DNA of 64,000 bases from Acidimicrobiia bacterium. Its GTDB lineage: Bacteria > Actinomycetota > Acidimicrobiia > Acidimicrobiales > AC-14. Below the pieces are notes generated by a model that did no database searches, was not told the DNA's origin, and worked only from the letters and a program-made list of their open reading frames with translations. The position numbers were made by a program, and so were the translations under genes. How positions within the stretch are numbered: position 1 is the first letter of the stretch; the number at the start of each line of letters is the position of its first letter. The DNA is taken from positions 34,980-98,979 of the forward strand of contig JAHFUP010000010.1 in assembly GCA_023265025.1 (NCBI GenBank). Direction: 5' to 3'. Shown piece by piece: positions 11,079 to 53,800 of the stretch.

Positions 11079-11225
11079 GTTTCGCCCATCACTCGCTCGC
11101 GTCGCTCGCTCCGTTCGGGCGAGTTGACGGCGCTCCGGCCGTCCGGCGGAGCCGGCCGGCCTCCGCCGTTCTCCTTCTGCCGGCAGCCGAAGGGGGCCGC
11201 CCCTGGCGGCGACAGCGGCCGCCGG
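11079..11225 (+). repeat. three-hairpin intergenic repeat, copy A (inverted relative to the genes)
   Basis: The repeat reads on the plus strand: GTTTCGCC and a CGCTCGCTCCGTTCG hairpin region, then core stem TCCGGCGGAGCCGGCC, the linker CCTCCGCCGTTCTCCTTC, the conserved GGCAGCCGAAGGGG, and the stem CCGCCCCTGGCGG. It fills the gap between glmS and acpS. Its GTTTCGCC end touches the acpS start codon. Confidence 0.8.
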
Positions 11226-11238
11226 TCTTGGGACGCCA

Positions 11239-13080
11239 TCATTCCACTGTCACCGTTTTGGCCAGGTTCCTCGGCTGGTCGACGTCGCAGCCTCGCGCCT
11301 TGGCGATGAAGTAGGCGAAGAGCTGGAGGGCGACCACGTCGACCAGGGGGGAGAACAGCTCGCCGCCCTTGGGGAACTCGGGAACCCACAGCACCGAGTC
11401 GGCATGAGCGGCGACCTCGTCGTCGCCCCGGGTCGCCACGACGACGACCGTCGCGCCGCGCGCCCGGACCTCGTCGATGTTGCTCATGATCTTGGGCCGC
11501 AGCCGGCCCCGGCTGGCGACCGCCACGACGACGGTGCCCGGCTCGATCAGGGCGATCGGCCCGTGCTTCATCTCGCCGGCGGGATAAGCCTCGGCCCGGG
11601 CGTAGGAGATTTCCTTGAGCTTGAGCGCCCCCTCCAGCGCCACCGGGTAGCCCACGCCCCGGCCCAGGAAGAAGAAGTCCCGCGTCTTGACGTACCGGCC
11701 GGCCACCTCGCCGATCTCGTCGGCGCCGGCCAGCACCCCGTCGATCAGCGCCGGCACCGCGTGCAGCGCCTCGATCTGGCGGGCCACCTCGTCGGGGTAG
11801 AGCACGCCGCGGGCCTGGGCCAGCCGCAGCGCCAGCAGCTCCATGGCCACGATCTGGGCCACGTGGGTCTTGGTGGCAGCCACCCCACGCTCGGGGCCGG
11901 CCCGGGTGTAGAGGACGGCGTCGGCCTCGCGGGCCATCGACGAGTCCACCACGTTGCAGACGACCAGCACCTTGGCCTTGTTGGTGGCCGACTTGGCGAA
12001 CCGGCAGGCCTCCATCGTGTCCAGGCTCTCGCCCGACTGGCTGACGCCGACGACCAGGCTCTGGGCGTCGAGCACCGGGTCGCGGTAGCGGAACTCGCTG
12101 GCCACGTCGATCTCGGTGGGCAGGCGGGCCCAGTGCTCGATGGCGTAGCGGGCCACCATGCCGGCGTGGAAGCTGGTGCCGCAGCCCACGATGAACACCT
12201 TGTCGACGGCCCGCAGCTCCTCGTCGGACAGCTCCAACTCGCCGAGGGAGAGCCGGTCGCCCTTCGTCCGCTCGCGGAGGGTCTCCCGGACGGCGCGCGG
12301 CTGCTCGTGGATCTCCTTGAGCATGAAGTCCGGGTAGCCGCCCTTCTCGGCCGTCTCGATATCGCCCTCCACCCGCCGGCGGACGGGGGAGACCTCGGCG
12401 CCGTCGAGCGTGGTGACCCGCAGCGTGCCCGGCCCGACCTCCACCACCTGGTCGTCGTCGATGACGTAGACCTCGCGGGTGGCGGCGAGCAGGGCCGGGA
12501 TGTCGGAGGCGACGAAACCGCTGCCGTCGGCCCGCCCGGCGACCAGTGGCGACGAGCGCCGGCCGGCGACGATGAGGTCGGGATTGGCCGAGTGCACCAC
12601 GGCGATGGCGAAGGAACCCTCCACCCGCTTCAGGGCGGCGCGCACCGCGTCGGCCAGGCCCGTCCCGTCGGCCATCCCCGCTTCGATCAGGTGGGCGAGC
12701 ACCTCGGTATCGGTCTCCGACCGCAGCTCGTGCCCGGCGGACACCAGCTCGTCACCCAGAACTGCGTGGTTCTCGATGATCCCGTTGTGGACCAGGGCCA
12801 GCGCGCCGGTGCAGTCGGTGTGGGGGTGGGCGTTGCGCTCGGTCGGCCCCCCATGGGTCGCCCACCGGGTGTGGCCGATCCCGACCGTGGCGTGCGGCGC
12901 GTCACCCACCGCCCCGGTGAGCTCGGCCAGTTTGCCGGCCCGCCGGCGGACCCAGACCCGGTCCTCGTCGACCAGGGCGACCCCCGAGGAGTCGTAGCCC
13001 CGGTACTCGAGCCGGCTCAGGCCGTCGAGGAGGAAGGGAAGGGCGGGATCACTACCTGTCACGCCGACGATGCCGCACAT
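11239..13080 (-). CDS. glmS: glutamine-fructose-6-phosphate aminotransferase (isomerizing)
   Basis: GlmS makes glucosamine-6-phosphate for peptidoglycan and related glycans. The 613-residue protein has the N-terminal amidotransferase domain with the catalytic Cys2 of MCGIVGV and the LEYRGYDSSG segment. Two SIS sugar-isomerase domains follow (VGCGTSFHAG, VSQSGESLDT), and it ends in the invariant LAKTVTVE. The length is standard. It follows glmM by 28 bp, so consecutive steps of UDP-GlcNAc synthesis are in one operon. No glmS ribozyme is seen upstream. Confidence 0.96.
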   Translation of the reverse strand: MCGIVGVTGSDPALPFLLDGLSRLEYRGYDSSGVALVDEDRVWVRRRAGKLAELTGAVGDAPHATVGIGHTRWATHGGPTERNAHPHTDCTGALALVHNGIIENHAVLGDELVSAGHELRSETDTEVLAHLIEAGMADGTGLADAVRAALKRVEGSFAIAVVHSANPDLIVAGRRSSPLVAGRADGSGFVASDIPALLAATREVYVIDDDQVVEVGPGTLRVTTLDGAEVSPVRRRVEGDIETAEKGGYPDFMLKEIHEQPRAVRETLRERTKGDRLSLGELELSDEELRAVDKVFIVGCGTSFHAGMVARYAIEHWARLPTEIDVASEFRYRDPVLDAQSLVVGVSQSGESLDTMEACRFAKSATNKAKVLVVCNVVDSSMAREADAVLYTRAGPERGVAATKTHVAQIVAMELLALRLAQARGVLYPDEVARQIEALHAVPALIDGVLAGADEIGEVAGRYVKTRDFFFLGRGVGYPVALEGALKLKEISYARAEAYPAGEMKHGPIALIEPGTVVVAVASRGRLRPKIMSNIDEVRARGATVVVVATRGDDEVAAHADSVLWVPEFPKGGELFSPLVDVVALQLFAYFIAKARGCDVDQPRNLAKTVTVE

Positions 13081-13108
13081 GGCGGCCAGCGTATGCCCCG
13101 GCCAGGGC

Positions 13109-14449
13109 TTACGCGCCCAGCGACCGCCCGACCGCGTCGCACAGCGTGTCGCACGCCGCCTCGGCCTCCTGCACGGTCATGGCCTCGACCATCACCCTGA
13201 CGACGGCCTCAGTGCCGCTCGGGCGCACGAGCACCCGGCCGCGATCGCCGAGGTCGGCCTCGACCGCCTTGACGGCCATGACGAGCTCCTCGGACGCCTG
13301 CACGCCGGCCCCTCGGGAGGCCACGGGCACGTTGCGCAGCACCTGCGGCAGCCGGACCATGACCGCGGCGAGGTCGGCCAGGGATCGGCCGGTGCGGACG
13401 ACCACGTCGAGCACCTGGAGGCCGGTCAAGGCGCCGTCGCCGGTGGTGGCCAGGTCGCCGAAGATGACGTGGCCCGACTGCTCGCCACCCAGCGACCAGC
13501 CGCCCCGCTCCATTTCCTCCAGCACGTACCGGTCGCCTACGTCGGTCTCGATGACCCTGATCCCCTCGCCGGCCATGGCCTGGCGGAACCCCAGATTGGT
13601 CATCACCGTCACGACCACGGCGTCGCCGGCCAGCCGGCCGTGGGCTCGGCGGTCAAGGGCGCAGATGGCGATGAGCTGGTCGCCGTCGACGAGGGCGCCG
13701 GTGTGGTCGACCGCCAGCACCCGGTCGGCGTCGCCGTCGAAGGCCAGGCCGGCATCGGCCCGCAGCGCCACCACCGCACGCTGGAGCTCCTCGGGGTGGG
13801 TCGAGCCGCACCGGTCGTTGATGTTGAGGCCGTCCGGTGCGTCATGGAGCACGGCGACCTCGGCCCCGAGCGCCCGCAGCACAGCCGGCGCCACTTCACT
13901 GGCCGCCCCGTTGGCGCAGTCGAGCACCACGGACAACCCGGCCAGGCTGCGACCGCCGATGGACGCGGCCAGGGCCTGCTCGTAACGGGCGTGGCCGCCG
14001 CCGGCGAGGAGACGGCCGAGGCCGGCGCCGGTGCGACGCTCCTCGGCGGCGGGATGGGCCAGGAGGCGGTCGAGCTCGGCCTCCAGCGCCGCCTCGGTTT
14101 CGTCCGAGAGCTTGCGCCCGCCGGCCTGGAAGAACTTCACCCCGTTGTCGGGGAAGGGGTTGTGCGAGGCGGAGATCACCGCCGCCGGCCGGGCGTCGGC
14201 CGCCGAGAGCCAGGCCACGCCGGGGGTCGGGAGGACACCGAGGTCGACCACGTCGGCGCCCTCGGTGGCCAGGCCGGCGGACAGGGCGGCCTGGAGCAGC
14301 GGCCCGGAGACCCGGGTGTCACGCCCGACGAGAAAAGGCCCGCCGCCCAGGACCCGGGCCGCGGCCCGGCCCAGGGCCAGCACCAGTTCGGGGGTGAGCT
14401 CGGCGTTGGCGACGCCGCGGACGCCGTCGGTGCCGAACCGGAGGGTCAC
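13109..14449 (-). CDS. glmM: phosphoglucosamine mutase
   Basis: GlmM converts glucosamine-6-phosphate to the 1-phosphate. The 446-residue protein begins MTLRFGTDGVRGVAN. The phosphoserine is Ser95 in SASHNPFPDNGVKFF, the metal loop is DGDADR near residue 240, and the C-terminal phosphate-binding loop is RPSGTEAVVRVMVEA. It lies between rpsI (28 bp upstream) and glmS, a typical actinobacterial order. Confidence 0.96.
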   Translation of the reverse strand: MTLRFGTDGVRGVANAELTPELVLALGRAAARVLGGGPFLVGRDTRVSGPLLQAALSAGLATEGADVVDLGVLPTPGVAWLSAADARPAAVISASHNPFPDNGVKFFQAGGRKLSDETEAALEAELDRLLAHPAAEERRTGAGLGRLLAGGGHARYEQALAASIGGRSLAGLSVVLDCANGAASEVAPAVLRALGAEVAVLHDAPDGLNINDRCGSTHPEELQRAVVALRADAGLAFDGDADRVLAVDHTGALVDGDQLIAICALDRRAHGRLAGDAVVVTVMTNLGFRQAMAGEGIRVIETDVGDRYVLEEMERGGWSLGGEQSGHVIFGDLATTGDGALTGLQVLDVVVRTGRSLADLAAVMVRLPQVLRNVPVASRGAGVQASEELVMAVKAVEADLGDRGRVLVRPSGTEAVVRVMVEAMTVQEAEAACDTLCDAVGRSLGA

Positions 14450-14477
14450 CGGCAGCCTCCTCGGATGGAGCCTGGGA

Positions 14478-14870
14478 CTATCGCTTGGAGTACTGGGGAG
14501 CCTTGCGGGCCTTCTTCAGGCCGTACTTCTTGCTCTCCTTCTTGCGGGCGTCACGGGTGAGGAACCCGGCCCGCTTGAGCGTCATGCGCAGTTCCTCGTC
14601 GAGGTCGACGAGGCCACGGGCGATCCCGAGGCGCAGGGCGCCGGCCTGGCCGGAGATCCCACCGCCGTCCATGGTGGCGTCGATGTCGTATGTCTCGTCC
14701 AGCGTGGTGAGGCGCAACGGCTCGGTGACGATCATCCGGTGCGTCTCAGACGGGAAGTAGTTCTCGATCGGGCGCTTGTTCACCGTGATCACGCCGGTGC
14801 CGGGCCGGATACGGACGCGGGCGACGGCCTGCTTGCGGCGGCCGGTCGACTGCACGAGGGGCTTGGGCAC
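14478..14870 (-). CDS. rpsI: 30S ribosomal protein uS9
   Basis: This 130-residue protein shows [18 protein letters not shown] at the start, [19 protein letters not shown] in the middle and the basic tail ending KAPQYSKR, whose last Arg reaches the P-site tRNA. It is the second gene of the rplM-rpsI pair, 29 bp after rplM. Confidence 0.97.
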
Positions 14871-14899
14871 GATTGTTCCTTCGACTTTCGGAGAGACGC

Positions 14900-15358
14900 T
14901 TACAGGCCGCGCTGGCGGGCGACGGCCATCGAGAGCTCGAGCGCCTCGGGCATCTGGGCGGCGTGGGGGTGGGTGGGGCCGGCGTAGACCTTGAGCTTCT
15001 TCAGCATCATGCGGCCGAGCGGGCCCTTGGGCAGCATGCCCCGGACCGCCTTGCGGACGGCCTCTTCGGAGTTGTTGGCCATGACGTCGGTATAGGACCG
15101 CTGGCGCAGGCCACCGGGGTAGCCGGTGTGGCGGTAAGCGACCTTCTTGGCCTCCTTGCCGGAGGTCAGGACCACCTTTGAGGCGTTGACAACGATGACG
15201 AAGTCACCCGTGTCCAGGTGGGGGGCGAAGATGGGCTTGTGCTTGCCGCGCAGGAGCCGGGCGACCTCCGACGACATGCGACCGAGGACGAGGCCCTCGG
15301 CGTCGACGAGATGCCAGGCGCGCTGGACGTCGGATGGTTTTGGGGAGAAGGTGCGCAC
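14900..15358 (-). CDS. rplM: 50S ribosomal protein uL13
   Basis: This 152-residue protein has [41 protein letters not shown] and [13 protein letters not shown], all uL13 hallmarks. It heads the rplM-rpsI-glmM-glmS run. Repeat copy B lies about 18 bp upstream of its start. In many bacteria uL13 binds its own leader; no such site was recognised here. Confidence 0.97.
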
Positions 15359-15375
15359 CGGGGGAAGAGTGTAGT

Positions 15376-15512
15376 CGCTTTCGGAAGCGGAGCTTCCTCA
15401 GCGAGGCGATCGCGTTCGCTCGGCCGGCGGAGCCGGCTCTCGCTCACCGTCTTCCTTTCGGAGCCGGCAGCCGAGAGGGGCCGCCTCCGGCGGCTTCTGC
15501 GGCCACCGGCGG
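15376..15512 (+). repeat. three-hairpin intergenic repeat, copy B (inverted relative to the genes)
   Basis: The copy has a divergent first hairpin (GGAAGCGGAGCTTCC), the core stem GGCCGGCGGAGCCGGC, linker TCACCGTCTTCCTTTC, conserved GGCAGCCGAGAGGGG and stem CCGCCTCCGGCGG. It occupies the gap between the SCP2-domain gene and rplM. It is read on the plus strand, opposite to the genes on both sides. Confidence 0.75.
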
Positions 15513-15517
15513 AGCGT

Positions 15518-16345
15518 TCACGGGTTTCTGAGCCAGGAGCGCAGCTGGAGGCCGAACCACGGCTTTCTTCCGGAGGCCATGAGCTGGCCTTTGGGGAGGG
15601 CCGACCACTGGCTGATCCGGCCCCAGGCGACCAGCAGGAAGGCCTCGGGATCGACGGAGAGCTTGCAGTCGACCTTTCCCTGCGGGGTGGCCTCGACCCA
15701 GAAGTCACCGTCGTTGAACACCAGGCAGGCCCGGCCGTCACCCCGCAGGTGGACGTCGAACCTCGCCCGCTTCTTGCCGGCCACCTCCTGGACGACCATG
15801 GCCCGGCCGAGGGTGTGCAGGGACGGGAACACGAAGCCCTGCAGGATCAGCGAGGCGTGGCCCCGATCGATCGGCCACGGCACGCCTTCGGCCATGGCGA
15901 TGTCGCGCCCGTGGACGGTCAGCTCGTTGAGGATGTGGCACGTCAGGGTGGACAGCGGCATCTCGGTGCCCTGGATCAGCCAGCTGTGGGACGAGTCTCG
16001 GCCGGTGACCGCCGCCGCCTCCATGTCGGCCAGGAACCGGCCGACGCTGGCGTCGATCCGGTCGGCCAGCTCGGGCAGCGGCCGCCGGCCCTCACCGTCG
16101 ATCATCACCTGGCTCAGCACGGGCAGCCCCGAGATGTCCTCGATCAGGTTGCCGCCGCCGACGCTCATGGCCGAGACGGCGTCCATGGCGTGGGAGACAT
16201 GGGTCGCCAGCTGGGTCACGTCCCACTCGCCCAGCGCCGGCGCCTCGGGCTTGCGGGCCGAGCGCAGCAGCTGGGTGAGCCGGGGGCCGGCGTCGGCGAC
16301 CGCCCCCCGGGCCGCGGCCCAGTCGACCGTCAGCGGGGTGCTCAC
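15518..16345 (-). CDS. maleylpyruvate isomerase-like (DinB/MDMPI) protein with C-terminal SCP2 sterol-carrier-like domain
   Basis: This 275-residue protein starts at a GTG (VSTPLTVDWAAARGAV). The first half has the mycothiol-dependent isomerase N-terminal helix bundle, with EWDVTQLATHVSHAMDAV near residue 45 and HILNELTVHGRDIA near residue 145, whose His residues could bind metal. The last 90 residues (FDVHLRGDGRACLVFNDGDFW, then a GQLMASGRKPW segment) match the SCP2 lipid-carrier fold. Actinobacterial members of this fusion act, or are thought to act, in mycothiol- or lipid-linked chemistry; the substrate is unknown. Confidence 0.8.
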   Translation of the reverse strand: MSTPLTVDWAAARGAVADAGPRLTQLLRSARKPEAPALGEWDVTQLATHVSHAMDAVSAMSVGGGNLIEDISGLPVLSQVMIDGEGRRPLPELADRIDASVGRFLADMEAAAVTGRDSSHSWLIQGTEMPLSTLTCHILNELTVHGRDIAMAEGVPWPIDRGHASLILQGFVFPSLHTLGRAMVVQEVAGKKRARFDVHLRGDGRACLVFNDGDFWVEATPQGKVDCKLSVDPEAFLLVAWGRISQWSALPKGQLMASGRKPWFGLQLRSWLRNP

Positions 16346-16367
16346 GGTCCTGCACCCTAGCGAGGCT

Positions 16368-18440: not shown

Positions 18441-18560
18441 CAGTTCGCCACGATAGCCGAAGGACAGGCATGGCCGGCGGACCGGGAGGGTAGGAACGCG
18501 GCGGGATCGCCTGGGGGCCCTTCGGGGTCGAGCAGCGGGCCGAAGCGAGAGGAGAACGCC

Positions 18561-18800
18561 ATGGTGGAGGTCGCACCACACCTGCAGGACCACGCTGTCG
18601 GGCTGGAGATGGAGATCGTCGAACTGGCTCGCCAGGCCGACCAGGCCGCCCAGGAGGGCTGGCCCGACCGGGAGACCGAGCTTCGCAAGGAGCTGGAGGG
18701 CCTCTACGGCGAGTTGGCCACGGTCGCCGAGGAGTTGACCGACCAGGTCAGCGCCGTCGCCCCCGCCGCCGAGGTGGCCGCCCCCGCCGCAGGGGACTGA
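18561..18800 (+). CDS. small acidic coiled-coil protein, function unknown
   Basis: This 79-residue protein begins MVEVAPHLQDHAVGLEMEIV and is almost entirely helical with heptad-like spacing (ELARQADQAAQEG, ELRKELEGLYGELATVAEEL), ending in an Ala/Pro-rich tail. A clear AGGAG site lies 8 bases before the ATG. It is divergent from the helicase gene (120 bp) and 114 bp upstream of yceI. No named family is recognised. Confidence 0.65.
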   Translation: MVEVAPHLQDHAVGLEMEIVELARQADQAAQEGWPDRETELRKELEGLYGELATVAEELTDQVSAVAPAAEVAAPAAGD

Positions 18801-18847
18801 CCGAAGCCGGCGCCTGGGGAATAGTCGAGCCCCGAAAGTGTTGTAGA

Positions 18848-18875
18848 GTTCAACCAAGTAGTTGAACCTTCAACT
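18848..18875. promoter_or_regulatory. double palindrome upstream of yceI, probable MarR-family operator
   Basis: Two overlapping palindromes are present: GTTCAAC-caagta-GTTGAAC (18848-18867) and AGTTGAA-cc-TTCAACT (18860-18875), both perfect over 7 bp arms. TTCAAC/GTTGAA half-sites of this kind are typical of MarR-type repressors. The site is 40-67 bp before the yceI ATG, a position fitting repression. No marR gene is in the window. Confidence 0.6.
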
Positions 18876-18914
18876 GACAACCCCGCCCCGTCGGGGCGGA
18901 CAAAGGAGCTCGAC

Positions 18915-20283: not shown

Positions 20284-20298
20284 GGGCTCACCGCAATT

Positions 20299-20336
20299 GG
20301 CTGCAGTGACGTGCCAGTAGGCACGTAGCTGCAGCC
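20299..20336 (-). terminator. GGCTGCAG-type hairpin after rplQ
   Basis: Outer arms GGCTGCAG (20299-20306) and CTGCAGCC (20329-20336) enclose inner arms ACGTGCC and GGCACGT around an AGTA loop. On the minus strand it starts 12 bases after the rplQ stop and is followed by AATTGCG. The outer arms and flanks match the hairpin after rpoC at 41670, so it belongs to a small family. It may be a terminator, pause or mRNA 3'-end element. Confidence 0.6.
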
Positions 20337-20348
20337 AGATCGATCGGG

Positions 20349-20702: not shown

Positions 20703-20706
20703 GGCG

Positions 20707-21651: not shown

Positions 21652-21665
21652 GCTTTTCGCTTTCT

Positions 21666-22289: not shown

Positions 22290-22421
22290 TTCGCCCTCGC
22301 TCGATTCGCTCCGCTCGTGCGAGTTGATCGCGCTCCGGCCGGCCGGCGGAGCCGGCCCGGCCTCCGCCGTGCCTCTTGCTGGCAGCCGATGGGGCCGCCT
22401 GCGGCGGCGTGAGCAGCCGCC
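22290..22421 (+). repeat. three-hairpin intergenic repeat, copy C (inverted relative to the genes)
   Basis: It begins at the rpsD start codon with TTCGCCCTCGCTCG. A hairpin-rich CGCTCCGCTCG segment follows, then GGCCGGCGGAGCCGGCC, linker CCTCCGCCGTGCCTCTTG, conserved GGCAGCCGATGGGG and stem CCGCCTGCGGCGG. It sits between rpsK and rpsD and reads on the plus strand. Confidence 0.8.
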
Positions 22422-22442
22422 AGGATCGTCCTAGCACCTTAT

Positions 22443-24520: not shown

Positions 24521-24685
24521 CGCCGTCGGCCACGATCGGCCGCCGGAGGCGGCCCTCTATGGCTGGCGGTATATGCGGCGAGCGCAGCGACGCCGCCAAG
24601 ACGAGTTCGGCGGAGGCCGGCCGGCTCCGCCGGCTGGCCGGAGCTCGATTGCCTCGATCGAACGGAGCGAAGCGAGTGAGATTGA
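24521..24685 (-). repeat. three-hairpin intergenic repeat, copy D
   Basis: Read on the minus strand it begins directly after the adk TGA: CACTCGCTTCGCTCCG, then GAGCTCCGGCC, core AGCCGGCGGAGCCGGCC, CCTCCGCCGAAC. An extra hairpin (GGCGGCGTCGCTGCGCTCGC) follows, then GCCAGCCATAGAGGG and CCGCCTCCGGCGG. It is the longest same-sense copy and the only one with an inserted hairpin. Confidence 0.8.
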
Positions 24686-27940: not shown

Positions 27941-28076
27941 CGCCGGCCGCCGGCACCGCCAAAGGCGGTCCCTTCGGCTGGCGGAGGAAGGAAGAGGGCG
28001 TAGGGAGGCCGGCTCCGCCGGCCGCCCGAAGCGCCTTCAAGCTCGCCGAGCAAGCTCTGCTTGCGAAGGCGAAACA
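27941..28076 (-). repeat. three-hairpin intergenic repeat, copy E
   Basis: On the minus strand it begins at the base after the rplR TAG: TGTTTCGCC, hairpin GCAAGCAGAGCTTGC, then GGCCGGCGGAGCCGGCC. The linker CTCTTCCTTCCTCCGCC, conserved GCCAGCCGAAGGGA and stem ACCGCCTTTGGCGGT follow. The outer A-T pair of the last stem replaces the C-G of other copies, a compensatory change. Confidence 0.85.
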
Positions 28077-30540: not shown

Positions 30541-30692
30541 CGCGCCGGCCGCCGCTCGTGCGGAGCACCCCAGCGGCTGGCGCGTGGGCGAGCGAAGCTC
30601 GCCGCAAAAGCAGCGCCGGCGCCGGCCGGCTGCGCCGGACGGTGACGGCACGACACAACTCGCCGAGCAAGCTCTGCTTGCGAGGCGAAACA
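30541..30692 (-). repeat. three-hairpin intergenic repeat, copy F
   Basis: On the minus strand it starts at the base after the rplN TAG: TGTTTCGCC, hairpin GCAAGCAGAGCTTGC, GGCGAG, then core TCCGGCGCAGCCGGCC. A modified third part follows (GGCGAGCTTCGCTCGCC hairpin, then GCCAGCCGCTGGGG). The first 38 bases match copy E almost exactly, while the 3' half has diverged or been rebuilt. Confidence 0.8.
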
Positions 30693-36890: not shown

Positions 36891-37011
36891 CGCCCGCGCC
36901 GCCGAAAGGCGGCCTCCTCGGCTACCGGCCAGGAAGGAATGGCGGAGGGTGGCCGGCTCCGCCGGCTGCCCGCAGCGCAACTGCCTCGCCCGAGCGGAGC
37001 GAGGGCGAAAC
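36891..37011 (-). repeat. three-hairpin intergenic repeat, copy G
   Basis: On the minus strand it starts at the base after the rpsJ TAG: GTTTCGCCCTCGCTCCGC and TCGGGCGAGG, forming the first hairpin. Then come GGGCAGCCGGCGGAGCCGG, CCTCCGCCATTCCTTCC, GGTAGCCGAGGAGG and CCGCCTTTCGGCGG. It is the most complete and regular same-sense copy and is a good model for the family. Confidence 0.85.
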
Positions 37012-40675: not shown

Positions 40676-40744
40676 GGCGGCCGTTGCGCGCCGCAGGCGC
40701 CCCTCCGGCTGCCACCGCTACGCCGAGCGGAGCGAGGCCCCGAT
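40676..40744 (-). repeat. three-hairpin intergenic repeat, degenerate copy H
   Basis: On the minus strand this shortened copy has the first hairpin CTCGCTCCGCTCGGCG, lacks the central GCCGGCGGAGCCGGC stem, and keeps GGCAGCCGGAGGGG and a GCGCCTGCGGCGCGC hairpin. It lies between rpsG and fusA, about 44 bp after the rpsG stop rather than at it. A separate CGAGGGG...CCCCTCG hairpin (about 40752-40784) lies between that stop and the repeat. Confidence 0.6.
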
Positions 40745-41707: not shown

Positions 41708-41720
41708 AGGTCGATTGGAA

Positions 41721-45680
<3,960 letters not shown>

Positions 45681-48600
45681 TTAGAGCCTGCTTCCTCGCT
45701 CGGCTGCCCGCCGAGCGTCCTCTTCGTCTGAGCCGCGCTCGGGACGGGACAGGTCGATGCCCAGCTCCTCGGCGGTACGGAACACGTCTTCGTCGAGCTC
45801 CCGCATCTCGATCTCCTCGCCGGTGGTCGAGAGGACCTCGACGTTGAGGCAGAGGGACTGCATCTCCTTGATGAGCACCTTGAAGGACTCGGGGATGCCG
45901 GGCTCGGGGATGTTCTCGCCCTTGACGATGGCCTCGTAGACCTTGACCCGGCCGAGGACGTCGTCGGACTTGATGGTGAGCAGCTCCTGCAGGGCGTAGG
46001 CGGCGCCATAGGCCTCGAGGGCCCACACCTCCATCTCCCCGAAGCGCTGGCCGCCGAACTGGGCCTTCCCGCCCAGGGGCTGCTGGGTGATCATGGAGTA
46101 GGGGCCGGTCGACCTGGCGTGGATCTTGTCGTCGACCAGGTGGAGGAGCTTCAGGATGTAGACGAACCCGCAGGTGACCGGCCGGTCGTAGGCCTCGCCG
46201 GTGCGGCCGTTGTAGAGCGTCTGCTTGCCGTCGGCCTGGATCAGCCGGGGACCATCCGGCACTGCGGAATCGGAGTGGAGGCGCTGGGTGAGGATCTGCT
46301 GGATGGTGGGGTGCTTGCCGGAGCCGGCGTCGCCCTCCTCGTCCCAGTGCGCCCCGTCGAACACCGGCGACGCCACCCAGACCGCGGGCTCGGTGACCGG
46401 GCGGGTCTTGGTGGCCGTCGTGGAGGTGGGGGTGCCGTTGTTGGCGCCGTCCCAGCCGTGGCGGGCGGCGTAGCCCAGGTGGCATTCGAGCACCTGGCCG
46501 ACGTTCATCCGGCTGGGCACGCCCAGGGGGTTCAGGATGATGTCGACCGGGGTGCCGTCGGCCAGGTGGGGCATGTCCTCGACCGGGAGGATCTTGGAGA
46601 TGACGCCCTTGTTGCCGTGGCGGCCGGCCAGCTTGTCGCCCTCGCTGATCTTGCGCTTCTGGGCCACGTACACCCGGACCAGCTGGTTCACGCCGGGAGC
46701 CAGCTCGTGCTGCTCCTCCCGGGAGAACACCTTGACGTCGATGACCTTGCCGGTCTCGCCGTGGGGCACCTTGAGGCTGGTGTCGCGGACCTCGCGGGCC
46801 TTCTCACCGAAGATGGCCCGCAGGAGGCGCTCCTCGGGGGTGAGCTCGGTCTCGCCCTTGGGGGTGACCTTGCCCACCAGCACGTCGCCGGGGCCGACCT
46901 CGGCGCCGATGCGGATGATGCCCCGCTCGTCGAGGTCCTTGAGGATGTCGTCGGAGAGGTTCGGGATGTCCCGGGTGATCTCCTCGGCGCCCAGCTTGGT
47001 GTCGCGGGCGTCGACCTCGTGGGCCTCGATGTGGATGGAGGTCAGCACGTCGTCGCGCACCAGGCGCTCGGACAGGATGATGGCGTCCTCGAAGTTGTAG
47101 CCCTCCCACGGCATGAAGGCCACGAGCAGGTTCTTGCCGAGGGCCAGGTCGCCCTGGTGGGTGGAGGGGCCGTCGGCCAGCACGTCACCCAGGGCCACGG
47201 TCTGGCCCTCGTCGACGACCGGCTTCTGGTTGATGCAGGTGCCCTGGTTGGACCGGCGGAACTTGGCCAGGCGGTAGAACTTGCGGCCCAGCGTGCGGCC
47301 CTCGCGGTCGGTCTGGCCGTCGACGTACTGGACGACGATGTGGTCGCCGGTGACTTCCTGGACCTCGCCATCGCCCTCGGACAGGACGACGTCGCCGGCG
47401 TCACGGGCGGCGCGCTTCTCGATGCCGGTGCCGATGTAGGGAGCCTCGGCCCGGACCAGGGAGACGGCCTGGCGCTGCATGTTGGCCCCCATGAGGGCCC
47501 GGTTGGCGTCGTCGTGCTCGAGGAACGGGATCATGGCCGTGGCCACGGAGACGATCTGCTTGGGCGAGACGTCCATGAGGTCGACCTCGCTGGGCGGCAC
47601 GTAGTCGATCTCGCTGGTGGTGCCGTAGGACGTGCCGCCGGCGCCGATGCGCACGCCGGCGCCCTGCGGACCACGGCGCACGAGCACGCGGTCACCGACG
47701 AACTGGCCCTCGTCGTCGAGGGTGGCGTTCGCCTGGGCGATGACGTGCTCCTCCTCCTCGTCGGCGGCGAGGTAACGGATCTCGTCGGTGAGGCGGCCGT
47801 CGACCACCTTGCGGTACGGGGTCTCGATGAACCCGAAGTCGTTGACCCGGGCGTAGGTGGCCAGGGAGCCGATCAGGCCGATGTTGGGGCCTTCCGGGGT
47901 CTCGATCGGGCACATCCGGCCGTAGTGGCTGGTGTGCACGTCGCGGACCTCGAAGCCGGCCCGCTCACGGGACAGACCGCCGGGGCCGAGGGCCGAGAGG
48001 CGGCGCTTGTGGGTCAGGCCGTCGAGCGGGTTGGTCTGGCCCATGAACTGGGACAGCTGGCTGGTGCCGAAGAACTCCTTGATGGCCGCGACCACCGGGC
48101 GGATGTTGATCAGGGTCTGGGGCGTGATGGCCTCGACGTCCTGGGTGGTCATGCGCTCGCGGACGACCCGCTCCATGCGGGACAGGCCGATGCGGACCTG
48201 GTTCTGGATCAGCTCGCCCACCGAGCGGATGCGCCGGTTGGCGAAGTGGTCCTGGTCGTCGAGGCGGTAGCCCTCCTCGCCGGCGGCCAGGTGCAGCAGG
48301 TAGGTCGTGGCGGCCAGGATCTCCGACGGGCTCAGGACGAACTGCGTCTGGCCGGGGCGCTCGAGGTCGACGCTGAGCAGCTCGGCGATCTTCTCGATCT
48401 CCGGGCCGAGCTTGCGGTTCAGCTTGTAGCGGCCGACGCGGGTGAGGTCGTAGCGCTTCGGGTTGAAGAAGGCGTTCTCGAAGTAGGCGCGGGCGGCCTC
48501 GACCTGGGGCGGCTCGCCCGGGCGGGCCCGCTTGTAGATCTCGACCAGGGCCTCCTCCCGGGTGGGGGCGAGGTCCTTCTCCTTCTCCCACTGGCCCTCG

Positions 48601-49268
48601 AGGAAGTCGAAGTGGTTGACGAAGCGCTCGAGGAAGCCGGGGTGGGCCTCCTGGTCGTAGCCCAGGGCCCGCAGGAGGACGAACAGGGACAGGCGGCGCT
48701 TGCGGGCCACCCGGGTGCCGGCGGTGACGTCCTTGCCGGGCTTCTGCTCGATGTCGAACTCGATCCACTCACCGCGGTAGGGGTGGATGGTGGCGGTGGC
48801 GATGGTCTTGGCGTCGCGGCCGGGCTGGAAGATGACGCCCGGGGAACGGACGAGCTGGGACACGACAACCCGCTCGGTGCCGTTGATGATGAACGTGCCC
48901 TTGTCGGTCATCATCGGGAAGTCGCCCATGAAGACCGTCTGCTCTTTGATCTCGCCCGTGGTGGCGTTCATGAAGCGGGCGCGCACGAAGATGGGCGCGG
49001 AGAAGGTCATGTCCTTCTCCTTGCACTCCTCCACGGTGAACTTGGGCGGCGGACGCAGGTCCTGGTCGGCCGCGTCGAACTCCAGCTCAAGGCGGAGCTG
49101 GCCGGTAAAGTCCTCGATGGGGCTGATGTCGCGGAAGGTCTCGGCCATCCCCCGGTCGAGGAACCACTTGAACGAGTCTCGCTGTACGGCGATCAGGTCC
49201 GGGAGGGCCAGGACCTCGTCGAGGTTGGAAAAGGAAAAGCGTTCCCGAGGGGCGGGACGAGTGGGCAA
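45681..49268 (-). CDS. rpoB: RNA polymerase beta subunit
   Basis: The 1195-residue beta subunit has the standard blocks, ending with [20 protein letters not shown] and [15 protein letters not shown]. The rifampicin-pocket cluster I reads [20 protein letters not shown] then [16 protein letters not shown]. Compared with the common FMDQNNPL, the Asp equivalent to E. coli 516 is Gly (residue 410) and the Asn equivalent to 518 is Thr. His526 and Ser531 equivalents are kept. A good promoter lies about 210 bp upstream and a hairpin lies between it and rplL. Confidence 0.97.
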
Positions 49269-49479
49269 AACCTCACTCCTTCGCGGAGAGTGCTGGGCGG
49301 GCCATAAATTCGTGTGGAAGCCTGGATTCGAGGGCGTGCAGGGCAGGGCGGGTCGGTCAAAGCCGGGCGCGCGCGGTCAAGCCGGTGAAAAAGGACGGCG
49401 ACTCGCGGGCTGGCACGGCAGTTACCAGACTAGCTGCAGCTGCGCGATTGGGCAAGCCAGCTCGAATCAAGCTGGGTTG
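49269..49479 (-). other. probable rpoB leader
   Basis: About 210 bases lie between the predicted transcription start and the rpoB ATG. No reading frame with protein-like character is seen. On the minus strand a GAAGGAG site precedes the rpoB start. No strong long hairpin was recognised inside this stretch. Confidence 0.4.
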
Positions 49480-49508
49480 AGGCTATTCGACTCCGACGCT
49501 GGGGTCAA
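49480..49508 (-). promoter_or_regulatory. probable sigma-A promoter of rpoBC
   Basis: On the minus strand TTGACC (49503-49508) is followed after exactly 17 bases by TAGCCT (49480-49485). This fits a housekeeping promoter with a TAnnnT-type -10. It lies within the 362 bp rplL-rpoB gap, so rpoBC may be transcribed both from here and by read-through from rplJL. Confidence 0.6.
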
Positions 49509-49580
49509 GGGTTGTGGACAACATGCTGTTTCATCGCTCGGACGACAACGCCCGCTGACCGCTCCGGTATTCCCGTCATC

Positions 49581-49621
49581 TTCGTGAGTTGAGCTACCGC
49601 TGCGGTAGCCCAACTCACGAA
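49581..49621 (-). terminator. hairpin between rplL and rpoB (attenuator candidate)
   Basis: TTCGTGAGTTG (49581-49591) pairs with CAACTCACGAA (49611-49621), and after one mismatch GCTACCG pairs with CGGTAGC around a 3-base loop. It starts 9 bases after the rplL stop. Partial termination between rplJL and rpoBC at this place is known in E. coli; here no T tract follows, so the mechanism is open. Confidence 0.55.
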
Positions 49622-49630
49622 CGACGACCG

Positions 49631-50014
49631 CTACTTGAGCTCGACGGTGGCGCCGGCGCTTTCCAGCTGCGCCTTCGCCTTCTCGGCGTCCTCCTTGGAT
49701 ACCTTCTCGAGGACGGCCTTGGGGGCGCTGTCCACCAGGTCCTTGGCCTCCTTGAGACCGAGGTTGGTGAGGGCGCGCACCTCCTTGATGACCGGGATCT
49801 TCTGGGCGCCGACCTCGGCGAGGATGACGTCGAACTCGTCCTGCTCCTCGACCTCCGGTGCAGCCTCGGCCGCGCCAGCGCCGCCGGCGGCGGCCACGGC
49901 CACGGGGGCGGCGGCGGTCACGCCGAACTTCTCCTCGAACTCCTTGAGGAGCTCGGAGAGCTCGAGCACGGTCATGCCGGCGATGCTGTCGAGGATCTCT
50001 GCCTTGGTGGCCAT
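49631..50014 (-). CDS. rplL: 50S ribosomal protein bL12 (L7/L12)
   Basis: This 127-residue protein has the N-terminal dimerisation helix ([20 protein letters not shown]), an Ala-rich hinge ([20 protein letters not shown]) and the C-terminal domain [24 protein letters not shown] [20 protein letters not shown]. It forms the stalk that recruits translation GTPases. Its ATG follows the rplJ TAG directly. Confidence 0.97.
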
Positions 50015-50827
50015 CTACTGGTCTCCTTCTTTCTCGGTCTCAACGGGGGCGTTCTCAGGCTCGGCGGGGGCCGTCTCGGGCTCGGCGGCCGCCGTCTCGA
50101 CGACGGGCGTGCTCTCGGGCTCGGCGGGGGCCGTCTCGGCTTCGACGGTGGGGGTCTCGAGCTCGGGCTCGGGCTCGGCGGCCGGTGACTCGGCTTCGAC
50201 CGGGGTGGTCTCGGCTTCGACGGTGGGGGTCTCGGGCTCGGGCTCGGCCGTCTCGGGCTCGGGCTCCGTCGCCGCTTCCCCGGGGGCGATCAGTTGCTCG
50301 CCGGCGGCTTGACGCTTCTCGAGCAGGGCGGACAGCCCGTAGGCGAAATTGCGGGGCAGGGCCTGGAGCAGGCCCGCCATCTTGACGAGCGGGGCGGCGA
50401 GGGCGCCGGCCAACTGGGCGAGAATGACCTCACGAGGCGCGACGTCGGCGAGGGCGCCGGCGTCGGCCGCGCTGAGCACCGTGGTGCCGAGCAAGCCACC
50501 CTTGATGGTGAGGTTGGGGTTGGTGCGGGCAAAGTCGCGGAGGGACTTGGCCACGGCCACGGCGTCGCCGTCGACGAAGGCGATGGCCGTGGGGCCAACG
50601 AGGAGCGGCTCGAGGTCGGTGAGGCCGAGGTCGGCCGCCGCCCGCCGGACCAGCGTGTTCTTGAAGATGCGGTACTCGCCGCCGGCGTTGCCCACGGAGG
50701 CCCGGAGGTTGGCCAGGTCGGCGACCTTCAGCCCGCGGTACTCCGTCAGCAGCGCGCCGTTGGACGACGACAGGCGCTCGCGCACCTCGCTGACGACGGC
50801 GACCTTCTCAGGTCTGGGTTCTCCCAA
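50015..50827 (-). CDS. rplJ: 50S ribosomal protein uL10 with long acidic repeat tail
   Basis: The uL10 core spans residues 1-175 (EKVAVVSEVRERLSSSNGAL, LTEYRGLKVADLANLRASVG, YRIFKNTLVRRAAADLGL). The tail of about 90 residues is made of Glu/Pro/Thr repeats (EPEPETAEPEPETPTVEAET and variants). In uL10 the C-terminal helix binds the bL12 dimers and lies before this tail. I use the TTG at 50825-50827, because GGGAGGAG lies about six bases upstream; a longer frame is open but overlaps the leader structure. Confidence 0.93.
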   Translation of the reverse strand: MGEPRPEKVAVVSEVRERLSSSNGALLTEYRGLKVADLANLRASVGNAGGEYRIFKNTLVRRAAADLGLTDLEPLLVGPTAIAFVDGDAVAVAKSLRDFARTNPNLTIKGGLLGTTVLSAADAGALADVAPREVILAQLAGALAAPLVKMAGLLQALPRNFAYGLSALLEKRQAAGEQLIAPGEAATEPEPETAEPEPETPTVEAETTPVEAESPAAEPEPELETPTVEAETAPAEPESTPVVETAAAEPETAPAEPENAPVETEKEGDQ

Positions 50828-50849
50828 AGCAACTCCTCCCGGTTGGTCG

Positions 50850-50966
50850 GTACGCGCGAACAACCCTCGGGAGGTTCACGCCTCGTTGGGCGGGCCCGGT
50901 TGAAAGGGCCGCTTACGCGCCTACGCCCTTTCGAGGCAGTGGCGCACCGAATGTCTACGGCGATCT
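50850..50966 (-). ncRNA. ribosomal protein L10 leader
   Basis: The rplA-rplJ gap on the minus strand contains CCGTAGACA near its 5' end, GCGTAAGCGGCCC in the middle and CCGCCCAACGAGGCGTGAAC near the 3' end. These match the layout of the autoregulatory L10 leader, which the L10-(L12) complex binds to repress rplJL. The match is by pattern memory only. Confidence 0.6.
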
Positions 50967-50983
50967 AGATGTGACTGCTGATA

Positions 50984-51718
50984 CTAGCCGGCGCTGGCGG
51001 TGAGCTCCTCGTCGAGCGCCCGCATGGCGTTGGGGTCGACCTTGATGCCCGGGCCCATGGTGGAGGACACGGCGATGCCCCGCACGTACTTGCCCTTGGC
51101 CGACGCCGGCTTGGCCCGCTGGAGCTCCTCGACCACGGCCTGGAAGTTCTGCAGGAGCGCCCGCCGGTCGAAGCTCACCTTGCCGATGGGGACGTGGATG
51201 TTCCCGTAGCGGTCGGTGCGGTACTCCACCCGGCCGCCCTTGAACTCCCGGACCGCCCGGCCGACGTCCATCGTCACCGTGCCGGTCTTGGGGTTCGGCA
51301 TGAGGCCGCGGGGGCCAAGGACCCGGCCCAGCTTGCCCACCTGGCCCATGAGGTCGGGTGTGGCGATGGCGACGTCGAAATCGAGGAAACCGCCCTGCAC
51401 GCGGGCGACCAGATCGTCGGCGCCCACCACGTCGGCGCCGGCCTCCCGGGCCTCGGCCGCGGCGTCGCCGGCGGCGAAGGCCACGACGCGGACGTTCTTG
51501 CCGGTGCCGGCGGGCAGGCCGACGGTGCCGCGCACGATCTGGTCGGCCTTGCGGGGGTCGACGCCGAGGCGCACGGCCAGCTCCACCGACTCGTCGAACT
51601 TGGCCGCGGCCAGGCTCTTCACCAGGTCGACGGCCTCGCCGGGGGCGTGCTGGCGGTCGCGATCGAAGCGGCGGGTGGCGTCGACGTACTTCTTGCTGTC
51701 CTTGTGGGTGTGGGTCAT
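50984..51718 (-). CDS. rplA: 50S ribosomal protein uL1
   Basis: This 244-residue protein has [60 protein letters not shown] and a final [15 protein letters not shown]. It forms the mobile L1 stalk near the E site. It follows rplK by 5 bp. The ATG at 51716-51718 gives the usual length. Confidence 0.97.
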
Positions 51719-51723
51719 GTCGA

Positions 51724-52152
51724 TCAGCCCTTGACCGTGAGGCCCATGGAGCGGGCGGTGCCGACGACCTGGCGCTTGGCGGCCTCGAGGTCGTTGGCGT
51801 TGAGGTCGGGCAGCTTGGTGGTGGCGATCTCGGTGACCTGGGCGTCGGTGACGGTGCCGGCGGCCTCGCGGCCCGGCGCGGTGGAGCCCTTGGCGATGCC
51901 CGCTGCGGCCCGGAGCAGGACCGGCGTCGGCGGCGTCTTGATGACGAAGGTAAACGACCGGTCCTCGAAGACAGTGATCTCCGCCGGCACGACCGTGCCC
52001 CGCTGGGATTCCGTCGCCGCGTTGTACTGCTTGCAGAACTCCATGATGTTCACGCCGTGGGGGCCGAGGGCCGTGCCCACGGGCGGGGCCGGCGTGGCCG
52101 CCCCCGCCGGAATCTGAATCTTGACGATTGCCGCGACGCGCCGTTTGGCCAT
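51724..52152 (-). CDS. rplK: 50S ribosomal protein uL11
   Basis: This 142-residue protein has [40 protein letters not shown] and [20 protein letters not shown]. It binds the GTPase centre rRNA with uL10. Repeat copy I separates it from nusG. Confidence 0.97.
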
Positions 52153-52228
52153 GCGTGTACTTCTCCTTTGGTGGTCCTGGCGGCGTCCGAGGGACGCCTC
52201 CCACCCTTGATGAACGTTGCGATGTTAT

Positions 52229-52364
52229 CGGCCGGCGGCCGTGGTCACCGCCGAAGGCGGTCCCGCCCGGCTGCCGGCGAAAGAAGAACGGCGGAGGGCG
52301 ACCGGCTCCGCCGGTCGCCTGAAGCACGATTGCCTCGGCGAGCAACCTCCGGTTGCGACGCCGA
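52229..52364 (-). repeat. three-hairpin intergenic repeat, copy I
   Basis: On the minus strand it starts at the base after the nusG TAG: hairpin GCAACCGGAGGTTGC, GAGGCAATCGTGCTTC, core stem GACCGGCGGAGCCGGTC, CCTCCGCCGTTCTTC, GGCAGCCGGGCGGG, stem ACCGCCTTCGGCGGT. The A-T closing pairs in both stems differ from the G-C pairs of other copies while keeping pairing, which supports an RNA or DNA structure under selection. Confidence 0.85.
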
Positions 52365-53153
52365 CTAGAGCTTGGCTACCTGGCTGAATTCGAGCTCGAC
52401 GGGGGTTTCCCGGCCGAAGATGTTGACCAGCACCTTGAGCTTCATCTGGTCGTCGTTGATCTCGGCGATGGTGCCGGTGAAGTCGGCGAAGGGCCCTTCC
52501 CGCACCCGGACGCTCTCGCCGATCTCGAACATGGCCCGGTGGCGGGCCTTCTTGGGCGCCCCGTCGGTGCCGGTGGGCTGGACCTGGAGGATGCTCTCGA
52601 CCTCTTTGCGGGACAGCGGGGTGGGCTTGGCGCCCAGGCCGACGAACCCGGTGACGCCGGGGGTGTTGCGGACCACCCGCCAGGAGTCGTCGTCCAGCTC
52701 ACAGCGGACCAGCAGGTAGCCCGGAAAGACCTTCTTCTGGACGGTGACCCGCTTGCCGCCCTTGAACTCGATGACGTCCTCCATGGGGATGACGCACTCG
52801 AAGATCCGGTCCTCCATGTTCATGGAGGCGATGCGGCTCTCGAGATTCGACTTCACCTTGTTCTCGTAGCCGGCGTAGGTGTGCACGACGTACCAGGAGC
52901 CGGGGCGGTCGTAGGGGCTCTCGACGGGAGGCTCTTCCTCCTCCTCGTCGTCGAAGCCCTCGGCCAGCAGCTGGTCCTCGGACAGCACCTCATCGGCGAG
53001 GGGCACCTCGGCAGGGGCGGCGGCAGCCTCGTCGGACACGACGTCGACAGGCGCGGCGTCGGCCGGCGCTTCGGCCTCGGGCGCGGCGTCGACCGAGTCG
53101 TCGAGCGGCTCGACGCCGCCGGTCGTGATGGTGGGGTCTTCGGTCTGGCTCAT
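52365..53153 (-). CDS. nusG: transcription termination/antitermination factor NusG with acidic N-terminal extension
   Basis: The NusG core begins at [20 protein letters not shown] near residue 85 and has [17 protein letters not shown] and the KOW domain [18 protein letters not shown]. The first 84 residues are acidic and Ala/Pro-rich ([31 protein letters not shown]), longer than in most bacteria but known in actinobacteria. The ATG overlaps the secE stop as ATGA. NusG links RNA polymerase with Rho and, through uS10, with the ribosome. Confidence 0.96.
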
Positions 53154-53446
53154 TTGAAGAGGAAGATGACGGCTTTGGCGAAGACATAGTCGAGGGCGAA
53201 GATGATCGCGGTGAGCAGCAGGAGCGCCATCAGCACGACGATGGAGTAGTTGATGACCTCGGCTCGCGTGGGCCAGGCCACCTTCCGCAGCTCGGCGCGA
53301 ACCTGGCGGGCGTACTCCGAGGGGCCGATGCGCTCCTTCGTCGCCACCCGGGCCGGCGCCTGGCGCGGCGCTTCCCGGCGGGTGGGGCTGCCGTCAGCGT
53401 CGACCTGACCCTGACGCTGCATCATCCTCTTCATCTCACGGTTCAC
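53150..53446 (-). CDS. secE: protein translocase subunit SecE
   Basis: This 98-residue protein has a basic N-terminal half, then the conserved [20 protein letters not shown] and one membrane helix ([20 protein letters not shown]). SecE clamps SecY in the membrane. It lies between tRNA-Trp and nusG, the standard order. Confidence 0.95.
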
Positions 53447-53480
53447 GGCAAATTCTCCACTCGAGTCGGAGACGAACGAG

Positions 53481-53554
53481 CAGGGCAGGAGGGACTCGAA
53501 CCCCCAACCGCCGGTTTTGGAGACCGGTGCTCTGCCAAATTGAGCTACTGCCCT
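53481..53554 (-). tRNA. tRNA-Trp (CCA)
   Basis: A 74-base cloverleaf has acceptor stem AGGGCAG/CTGCCCT, D-arm AGCTCAATTTGGCAGAGC, anticodon loop CTCCAAA (anticodon CCA), T-arm GGGGTTCGAGTCCC and discriminator G. The 3' CCA is not encoded. Its place before secE is typical. Confidence 0.95.
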
Positions 53555-53632
53555 CAGCGGGCCAGCCCCTGACGTACGCGTCCCTAGGTTAGCCCATCGC
53601 CGACGATGGGCTCCCTGCAGTAGACGCTCTAG

Positions 53633-53800
53633 TGCCTCGACCTCATTCGTTCGCTTCGCTCACTCCATTCGGTCGAAGTGATCGTGCTCCGGCGGGCGAG
53701 CGGAGCTCGCGCCGCCTCCGCCCTGTCCCTCCCTCCTCTCCGCAGCCGAAGGGGCCGCCTTCGGCGGCGACGGCGGCCACGGACGGGAAACCCCACGGGC
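53633..53800 (+). repeat. three-hairpin intergenic repeat, copy J (inverted relative to the genes)
   Basis: It reads on the plus strand: TTCGCTTCGCTCACTCC, GTGCTCCGGC, a rebuilt central stem GGCGAGCGGAGCTCGC that keeps the GGA loop, CCTCCGCCCTGTCCC, GCAGCCGAAGGGG and CCGCCTTCGGCGG. It lies in the 271 bp gap between the anti-sigma gene and tRNA-Trp. Unlike copies A and C its first module abuts no gene start. Confidence 0.75.

What the first reader, a model, noticed from the sequence alone, without database searches (positions are those of the whole stretch)
11079..53800. A dispersed three-hairpin intergenic element, ten copies in 43 kb, confined to gaps between core genes
Copies lie at 11079-11225, 15376-15512, 22290-22421, 24521-24685, 27941-28076, 30541-30692, 36891-37011, 40676-40744, 52229-52364 and 53633-53800. 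The shared order is: a first hairpin of the GTTTCGCCCTCGCTCCGCTC type; GAGCTCC; a central stem GGCCGGC-GGA-GCCGGCC; CCTCCGCC; a pyrimidine tract; GGCAGCCGAAGGGG; and a last stem CCGCC-TTC-GGCGG. The segment CAGCC with flanking G-runs is kept in nearly every copy (TAGCC in one), even in the shortened copy H. The copies split operons that are normally tight (rplN/rplX, rplR/rpsE, rpsJ/rplC, rpsK/rpsD, adk/map, nusG/rplK). I do not recognise this as a named repeat or Rfam family. It could be a mobile palindromic element (REP/MITE-like), a structured 3'-UTR or processing element, or a binding site for a protein that tunes ribosomal-protein transcripts.
Basis: partly seen in the sequence, partly recalled or inferred. 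Interest (0 to 1): 0.87.

Follow-up and report, generated by a model that had tools for sequence, protein, structure and literature searches.

The report
Jumping hairpin repeat at stop codons
A family of short non-coding DNA repeats with three conserved hairpins, with 107 matches in the draft genome of this actinobacterium, sits mostly right at the stop codon of a neighbouring gene, even inside ribosomal-protein operons; its youngest copies carry the ends of a known type of jumping gene (IS630) and are therefore likely moved by that element's enzyme.

Summary
The repeat is real. Nine of the ten reported copies match a common model at 68-140 bits; copy H is at best a decayed remnant (14 bits). 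The draft genome holds 107 matches, and 12 of 59 related genomes of the order (Acidimicrobiales, judged from record titles) hold more. Sixty-one aligned copies show strong covariation in three hairpins; no Rfam family matches. The stems show no excess of G-U over A-C, unlike tRNA stems, which points to DNA hairpins rather than an RNA (one extra column pair argues otherwise). A young subfamily (41 copies, mostly 195-196 bp, median 97% identity; window copy J) is bounded by CTAG, and its ends match the left and right ends of a complete ~1.2-kb IS630-family insertion sequence of another genome of the order. CTAG is rare here and about half of the CTAGs are amber stops, which explains the seats at stop codons. 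In a sister species the same gaps are empty at rplR/rpsE, nusG/rplK, rpmF/plsX and nuoH/nuoI. Best reading: a new MITE family whose young form is moved by an IS630 transposase supplied in trans; how the older core moved is inferred. Old copies are biased to the sense direction, so selection or a REP-like effect is likely.

The parts
11079..11225 (+). copy A, glmS/acpS gap; left end abuts the GTG start of acpS (minus strand)
   Evidence: (139.5 bits); same gap without a recognisable copy in G001 and G002
15376..15512 (+). copy B, upstream of rplM (minus strand)
   Evidence: (116.1 bits)
22290..22421 (+). copy C, rpsK/rpsD gap; left end abuts the rpsD ATG
   Evidence: (125.8 bits); the gap is -1 to 19 nt in 15 of 19 relative loci
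24521..24685 (-). copy D, adk/map gap, sense, directly after the adk TGA
   Evidence: (118.3 bits)
27941..28076 (-). copy E, rplR/rpsE gap, sense, directly after the rplR TAG (CTAG)
   Evidence: (138.3 bits); present in G002, empty (2 nt) in G001
30541..30692 (-). copy F, rplN/rplX gap, sense, after the rplN TAG; lowest score of the nine
   Evidence: (68.4 bits)
36891..37011 (-). copy G, rpsJ/rplC gap, sense, after the rpsJ TAG; G001 has an unrelated ~50-nt hairpin-like stretch here
   Evidence: (122.6 bits)
40676..40744 (-). copy H, at best a decayed remnant (H1- and H3-like pieces, no H2) in the rpsG/fusA gap
   Evidence: (14.1 bits, partial, E 0.0085); not a secure member
52229..52364 (-). 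copy I, nusG/rplK gap, sense, after the nusG TAG (CTAG)
   Evidence: (134.6 bits); empty in G001 with the same CTCTAG
53629..53829 (+). copy J, full young-type element CTAG-TGCC...GGCT-CTAG; the right CTAG holds the amber stop of the minus-strand ORF 53826-54584
   Evidence: (122.4 bits)
53629..53632 (.). left CTAG of copy J (presumed TA duplication inside)
53826..53829 (.). right CTAG of copy J

Best explanation
The repeat is a family of short non-coding DNA elements of the MITE kind, with a conserved three-hairpin core and 107 model matches in this draft genome, that sit mostly directly at a neighbouring stop codon and are likely moved in trans by an IS630-family (Tc1/mariner-like) transposase predicted to insert at the TA of CTAG. 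Shown: copies, structure, covariation, CTAG at both ends of most young copies, ends matching the left and right ends of a complete IS630 element of another genome of the order, occupied and empty sites between species of one genus, close copies in another family. Inferred: (1) that the IS630 transposase does the moving (none was found in this draft assembly); (2) that CTAG, seven-fold rarer here than base composition predicts and about half the time an amber stop, steers insertions to stop codons, where they keep the stop and do little harm; (3) that the hairpins are kept because the DNA folds (cruciform or single-strand hairpin) during transposition or end recognition; (4) that the older copies, whose ends do not show the IS630 repeat, entered by the same or a related route and are kept mainly in the sense direction because reversed copies harm the operon more.
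For: Young subfamily: 41 copies with both ends found; 38 of them aligned pairwise, median identity 97.4%, 32 distinct. CTAG within a few letters of the left end in 28, right in 26, both in 22 of 33 copies with long flanks; such a CTAG is an amber stop on either side in 25 of 33, against 51 of 101 CTAGs elsewhere (p 0.015). Stops at the ends of copies: TAG in 31 of 35 (young) and 26 of 50 (old), background 80 of 242 (p 3e-10 and 0.015). A neighbouring stop lies at one end in 30 of 39 young, 42 of 51 old and 61 of 70 relative copies. The right terminal repeat occurs with <=3 mismatches in 15 of 397 genomes, own included; reversed control 1 hit. L191 is ~1220 bp with AGCTAG on both sides and both ends within 4 mismatches of the repeat; L187 has the same size, CTAG on both sides, right end 3 and left end 7 mismatches. 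They code 374 and 391 aa: NF033545 IS630 171 and 149 bits over a cut-off of 100, DDE_3. Same-genus G002 has an IS630 with TAGTGCCGTGACC-type ends in CTAG context, one in-frame TGA in the match. Core plus IS630 end also in G111 and, without H2, in G074, another family; L183 and L197 match the young type in 95 of 102 columns over its first 100 letters and 84-86% overall. Sites: rplR/rpsE empty in G001; nusG/rplK and rpmF/plsX with native CTAG; nuoH/nuoI empty in G001; C10:99612 native CTAG in G001. Covariation: 22 of 31 pairs change on both sides, 88.1% paired against 28-48% when slid. DNA level: G-T 31 vs A-C 38, tRNA control 8 vs 1. Parallels: RUP by IS630-Spn1 (PMC2229807, passages); IS630-family insertion at TA (PMC2170065, passages), whose reference list cites IS630 preference for TA in CTAG.
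Against: No IS630 transposase found in this genome, a 185-contig draft. No link between IS630 and repeats: of 12 relatives with repeats 5 have an IS630 over the cut-off (G001, G002, G018, G023, G038) and 7 do not (G005, G007, G008, G009, G016, G034, G045, the richest among them), while G004 and G006 have one without repeats found. Old-type ends do not match the IS630 repeat beyond TAG, and in relatives the stop before sense copies is mostly TGA (35 of 52). The core is not seen inside the IS found. Eleven of 33 young copies lack CTAG at one or both ends, one has an 11-bp flank repeat. The sense bias of old copies (41:10 in relatives, 21:6 here) is not predicted by insertion alone. Including three basal H2 pairs, G-T rises to 76 vs 39 A-C (p 0.0007), nearly all due to one column pair. 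An empty site could also be a loss.
Confidence: 0.7

Rival explanations
1. A REP/REPIN-type element moved by a single-strand (Y1/RAYT) transposase that recognises the hairpins.
For: Hairpin-rich, >100 matches, next to stop codons as many REPs are (PMC12306157, passages); stems look DNA-selected.
Against: No Y1_Tnp found in the draft genome; young copies have terminal inverted repeats and CTAG flanks, which REPs lack (recalled); the ends match IS630.
Confidence: 0.1
2. A functional structured RNA or 3'-UTR/intercistronic element (stability, processing, termination or ribosome stalling) kept by selection for expression, with mobility secondary.
For: In relatives the stop ends within the model's first 30 nt in 52 of 57 copies whose left gene is sense; between co-directional genes sense:antisense is 41:10 (p 1.5e-5), 21:6 for old copies here (p 0.006), 13:8 for young ones (p 0.38). 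Same gaps occupied in several lineages (rplR/rpsE, rpsK/rpsD, nuoH/nuoI). One column pair beside H2 is T-G in 44 of 61 copies.
Against: G-U not above A-C in the 31 named pairs (31 vs 38) while 14 tRNAs show 8 vs 1; the rplR/rpsE gap holds the element in opposite directions in G016 and G038; empty in a same-genus genome; patchy presence (12 of 59 relatives).
Confidence: 0.17
3. Ordinary GC-rich intergenic palindromes or terminators with no common descent.
For: 70% GC window with a tail of weak matches.
Against: E-values down to 2e-33 outside the window, shared linker and pyrimidine tract, covariation, no match in 47 of 59 relatives.
Confidence: 0.02

Closest known systems
RUP of Streptococcus pneumoniae (IS630-Spn1 MITE)
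   Same: 107 bp, 108 intergenic copies, ends like an IS630, TA in the target (PMC2229807, passages)
   Different: ours is GC-rich, has three internal covarying hairpins, sits at CTAG and amber stops, and its core exists with other ends across an order; no transposase found in the same genome
Correia/NEMIS elements
   Same: terminal inverted repeats, TA at the ends, related element types of different length (PMC2229807, passages)
   Different: different host group and ends; no sequence comparison was made
REP/BIME/REPIN
   Same: palindromic, extragenic, close to stop codons (PMC12306157, passages); insertion sequences at the repeat (compare PMC1525189, start of abstract only)
   Different: terminal inverted repeats with CTAG; about 120-200 bp; no Y1 enzyme found

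Membership tests
IS630-type MITE (young subfamily) | terminal inverted repeats matching an IS630 element | tested here: met
IS630-type MITE (young subfamily) | TA target duplication (here within CTAG) | tested here: met
   CTAG at both ends in 22 of 33; native CTAG at C10:99612 in G001; several other young sites aligned too poorly to tell
IS630-type MITE (young subfamily) | short, no transposase, many near-identical copies | tested here: met
   41 copies of 157-196 bp, 37 of them 195-196 bp; median identity 97.4%
IS630-type MITE (young subfamily) | mobilised by the IS630 transposase | not testable with these tools
   needs an assay; no IS630 found in this draft
IS630-type MITE (older copies) | IS630-like terminal repeat at both ends | tested here: not met
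   read by eye: only (C)TAG plus TTTCGCC on the left
IS630-type MITE (older copies) | insertion at TAG/CTAG | tested here: inconclusive
   26 of 50 TAG vs 80 of 242 background in this genome, native CTAG at rplR, nusG, rpmF; in relatives mostly TGA
REP (RAYT-associated) | Y1 transposase in the genome | tested here: not met
   (draft genome, PF01797)
Rfam RNA family | match to any of 4227 models | tested here: not met
   only tRNAs
functional RNA | G-U tolerated more than A-C in stems | tested here: inconclusive
   31 vs 38 in 31 pairs, but 76 vs 39 if three basal H2 pairs are added, through one column pair; tRNA control 8 vs 1

The most novel reading that the evidence does not exclude
The three-hairpin core is a mobile module in its own right: a DNA-folding unit that has been carried by several different transposon ends across the Acidimicrobiales, uses amber stop codons as safe harbours, and after landing becomes a REP-like, direction-dependent regulator at the end of the upstream gene, including ribosomal-protein and respiratory-complex-I genes.
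Probability: 0.25. Interest if true: 0.75.

Novelty: new variant of a known kind. Interest (0 to 1): 0.5.

Why it matters
It names a repeat family of an order known here mostly from metagenome-assembled genomes, with a likely mover, a target rule and young and old copies, so each step is testable. It suggests how a transposon that prefers CTAG can fill a GC-rich genome safely, because there CTAG often means 'stop codon'. It also warns that some long gaps inside ribosomal operons, and some contig breaks, in these genomes are repeat insertions rather than regulatory leaders.

Tried and rejected
REP/RAYT: no Y1_Tnp found. IS701 (PF13546) and IS481 (NF033577; weak matches, loci read, no matching ends) as movers: rejected. 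PF13358 in the own genome: none. The IS110 transposase beside some young copies was considered as the partner and rejected: it lies outside the element and abuts its end, as an insertion would. Automatic RNAalifold on A4 found only 7 pairs; the structure was therefore written from one sequence (L241) and counted on a structure-blind MAFFT alignment. A first background for stop usage subtracted too much and was replaced. Plasmids: one match covering 37% of the query, in a Streptomyces gene, taken as chance; phages and viral contigs (one exact pattern): none. Rows dropped: of 107 own matches the 7 weakest were left out, 98 of the other 100 had sequence, contexts were assigned for 90 of the 98 and for 70 of 71 relative copies; A4 holds 61 copies (9 window, 52 relatives), leaving out the short two-hairpin forms of G016, G023, G038, G045 and several partial copies. 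Gene strand was judged by third-position GC, which misread copy G and the downstream side of F. nuo, rpmF and plsX names were read by eye, not by a family search. Copy counts are lower bounds: few candidates were scored. Several young-site alignments (C103, C121, C7, C58, C109) were too poor to define a footprint. Papers: searches; two gave no paper, and in the listed titles of the others (12 of 630) no Acidimicrobiales MITE of this kind turned up.
Full report
What was checked. The ten stretches were read and oriented. Nine share one plan: hairpin H1 (TTTCGCC...GGCGAG), linker (YGCTCCGG), hairpin H2 (CCGGC-RRA-GCCGG inside a longer stem), CCTCCGC, a pyrimidine tract, and hairpin H3 (GCCGGCAGCC ... 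CCGCC-TTC-GGCGG ... GGCCGCCGGC). A model from these nine gives nine strong window matches of 68-140 bits; H gives 14 bits and is a remnant at best. The draft genome (5.45 Mb, 185 contigs) has 107 matches with 150 of 12435 candidates scored. Rfam has nothing. Neighbouring genes were read from translations and 17 of 18 confirmed by NCBIfam; the ORF beside copy J has no firm name.

Where it lives. Of 59 related genomes 12 have matches, in several families of the order; genomes of the same family can have none found. An exact pattern search of genome contigs (84,980 species by its description) gave 32 stretches: 31 titled Acidimicrobiales, Acidimicrobiia, Acidimicrobiaceae or plain Actinobacteria/Actinomycetota, and one Marinitenerispora that may be chance. 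The order name Acidimicrobiales rests on these titles, tied to G002, G005, G007, G016 and G034 by equal contig lengths. Viral contigs gave none.

Structure. Sixty-one copies (9 from the window, 52 from relatives) were aligned without structure. Thirty-one named pairs are formed in 88.1% of cells; sliding the partner by 1-3 columns gives 28-48%. Twenty-two pairs change on both sides, 142 cells against 36 in shuffles. If the folded thing were an RNA of this strand, G-U should exceed A-C: in these pairs it does not (31 vs 38), whereas 14 distinct tRNAs from all loci held show 8 vs 1 in acceptor and T stems. Against this, one column pair beside H2 is T-G in 44 sequences; counting three basal H2 pairs gives 76 vs 39. 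I read that column as sequence conservation and the rest as selection on folded DNA, but the test is not clean.

The young subfamily and its mover. Forty-one copies have ends CTAG|TGCCTCGACC ... GGTCAGGGCA|CTAG or close to it; 38 of them have a median pairwise identity of 97.4%. Window copy J is one. The right end occurs in 15 of 397 genomes of the order, own included. In two of them (L191, L187) two such ends in CTAG context enclose ~1220 bp with one gene for an IS630-family transposase. The left end of the young repeat resembles the left end of L191 (18 of 22 letters by eye) and its right end the right end of L191 (2 mismatches in 23). Same-genus G002 holds an IS630 with similar ends. None was found in the own genome. 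IS630-family elements insert at TA (PMC2170065, passages); the reference list of that paper cites IS630 preference for TA in CTAG. In G111 the young repeat occurs with core and IS630 end (L183, L197: 95 of 102 columns over the first 100 letters, 84-86% overall), and in G074 without H2; both belong to another family, so the element has probably moved between lineages. In G206 and G013 unrelated near-perfect palindromes carry such ends.

Why stop codons. CTAG occurs 25 times in the window, against 177 expected from base composition and 45 from a Markov estimate; outside the copies 10 of 19 in the window and 51 of 101 in other stretches are amber stops of coding-like frames. Young copies with long flanks have an amber stop at one end in 25 of 33. 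Counting any stop codon, 30 of 39 young, 42 of 51 old and 61 of 70 relative copies touch one. These stops are TAG in 31 of 35 for young and 26 of 50 for old copies, against 80 of 242 in the background. Insertion at CTAG keeps the stop, so it should do little harm even behind rplR or nusG.

Occupied and empty sites. rplR/rpsE: occupied in G000 and G002, empty (TTCTAG-AG-ATG) in G001; in the same gap G016 carries a short two-hairpin form in the same direction and G038 a copy in the opposite direction, so the gap was probably hit more than once. rpmF/plsX has GACTAG in all three species and the element only in G000; nusG/rplK has CTCTAG in G000 and G001, empty in G001; nuoH/nuoI is occupied in G000 and G002 and empty in G001; nuoA/nuoB is empty in G001 and G002. 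Copy E and the nuoH/nuoI copy thus probably predate the split of G000 and G002.

What does not fit, and what may be new. Older copies lack the IS630 repeat, and in relatives the stop before sense copies is TGA in 35 and TAG in 12 of 52. IS630 over the cut-off occurs in 5 of 12 relatives with repeats and not in the richest ones. Old copies between co-directional genes are mostly sense (41:10 in relatives, 21:6 here), young ones not clearly so (13:8). This fits removal of reversed copies, or a benefit of sense copies such as the ribosome stalling described for REPs within 15 nt of a stop (PMC12306157, passages). Reversed copies in front of a start codon offer a GAGG shortly before it in four of six read by eye (G000 copy C, G007, G016, G038; not window copies A and B); this is no test.

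Verdict. A new MITE family, judged to belong to Acidimicrobiales: the young form meets every feature of the IS630 kind that could be tested; the older core is its relative, whose movement is inferred. Interest is moderate: the kind is known, but the stop-codon seat, the covarying hairpin core shared by several kinds of ends, and the orientation bias are unusual and testable. Confidence was lowered from 0.72 to 0.70 on rechecking, because the IS630/repeat distribution and the added G-T column weaken two supporting lines.

Noticed in passing
L072:407-1561 and L015, L073, L084, L110: An IS110-family (RNA-guided) transposase gene lies beside a young copy in L072; the 17-letter end GTGGAACGGCTTGTCAA abuts young copies in five loci, so IS110-like elements may use the repeat's end as a target. 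Only L072 shows the gene; beyond the 17 letters its sequence differs from the other four.
   Followed up: partly
own genome C91, C21:33148, C31:319, C101:46094, C32:30877, C125:19208: A second subfamily with other ends (CTAGCGACTTTCGGG ... GCGAGTGTCGTCCCTCTAG) around the same core; no insertion sequence with such ends was looked for.
   Followed up: no
L181, L206, L208 (G206), L200 (G013): Near-perfect palindromes of about 158 bp with the same IS630-type ends but no model match for the three-hairpin core.
   Followed up: partly
L324 (G002 nusG/rplK gap): TAGTCGGCG at the nusG stop, equal to the left end of window copy I, may be an excision or deletion scar.
   Followed up: no
own genome C103:19944-20119: Young copy with CCCACAGCTAG on both sides, an 11-bp repeat larger than a TA duplication.
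   Followed up: no
young copies, base before the right CTAG: Where this base is not A it equals the base before the left CTAG in 7 of 9 copies (by eye), hinting at an occasional longer duplication.
   Followed up: no
contig ends of G000 (C88:6, C58:2, C27:24, C177:1): Some copies lie at contig ends; the repeat may break the assembly and hide further copies.
   Followed up: no
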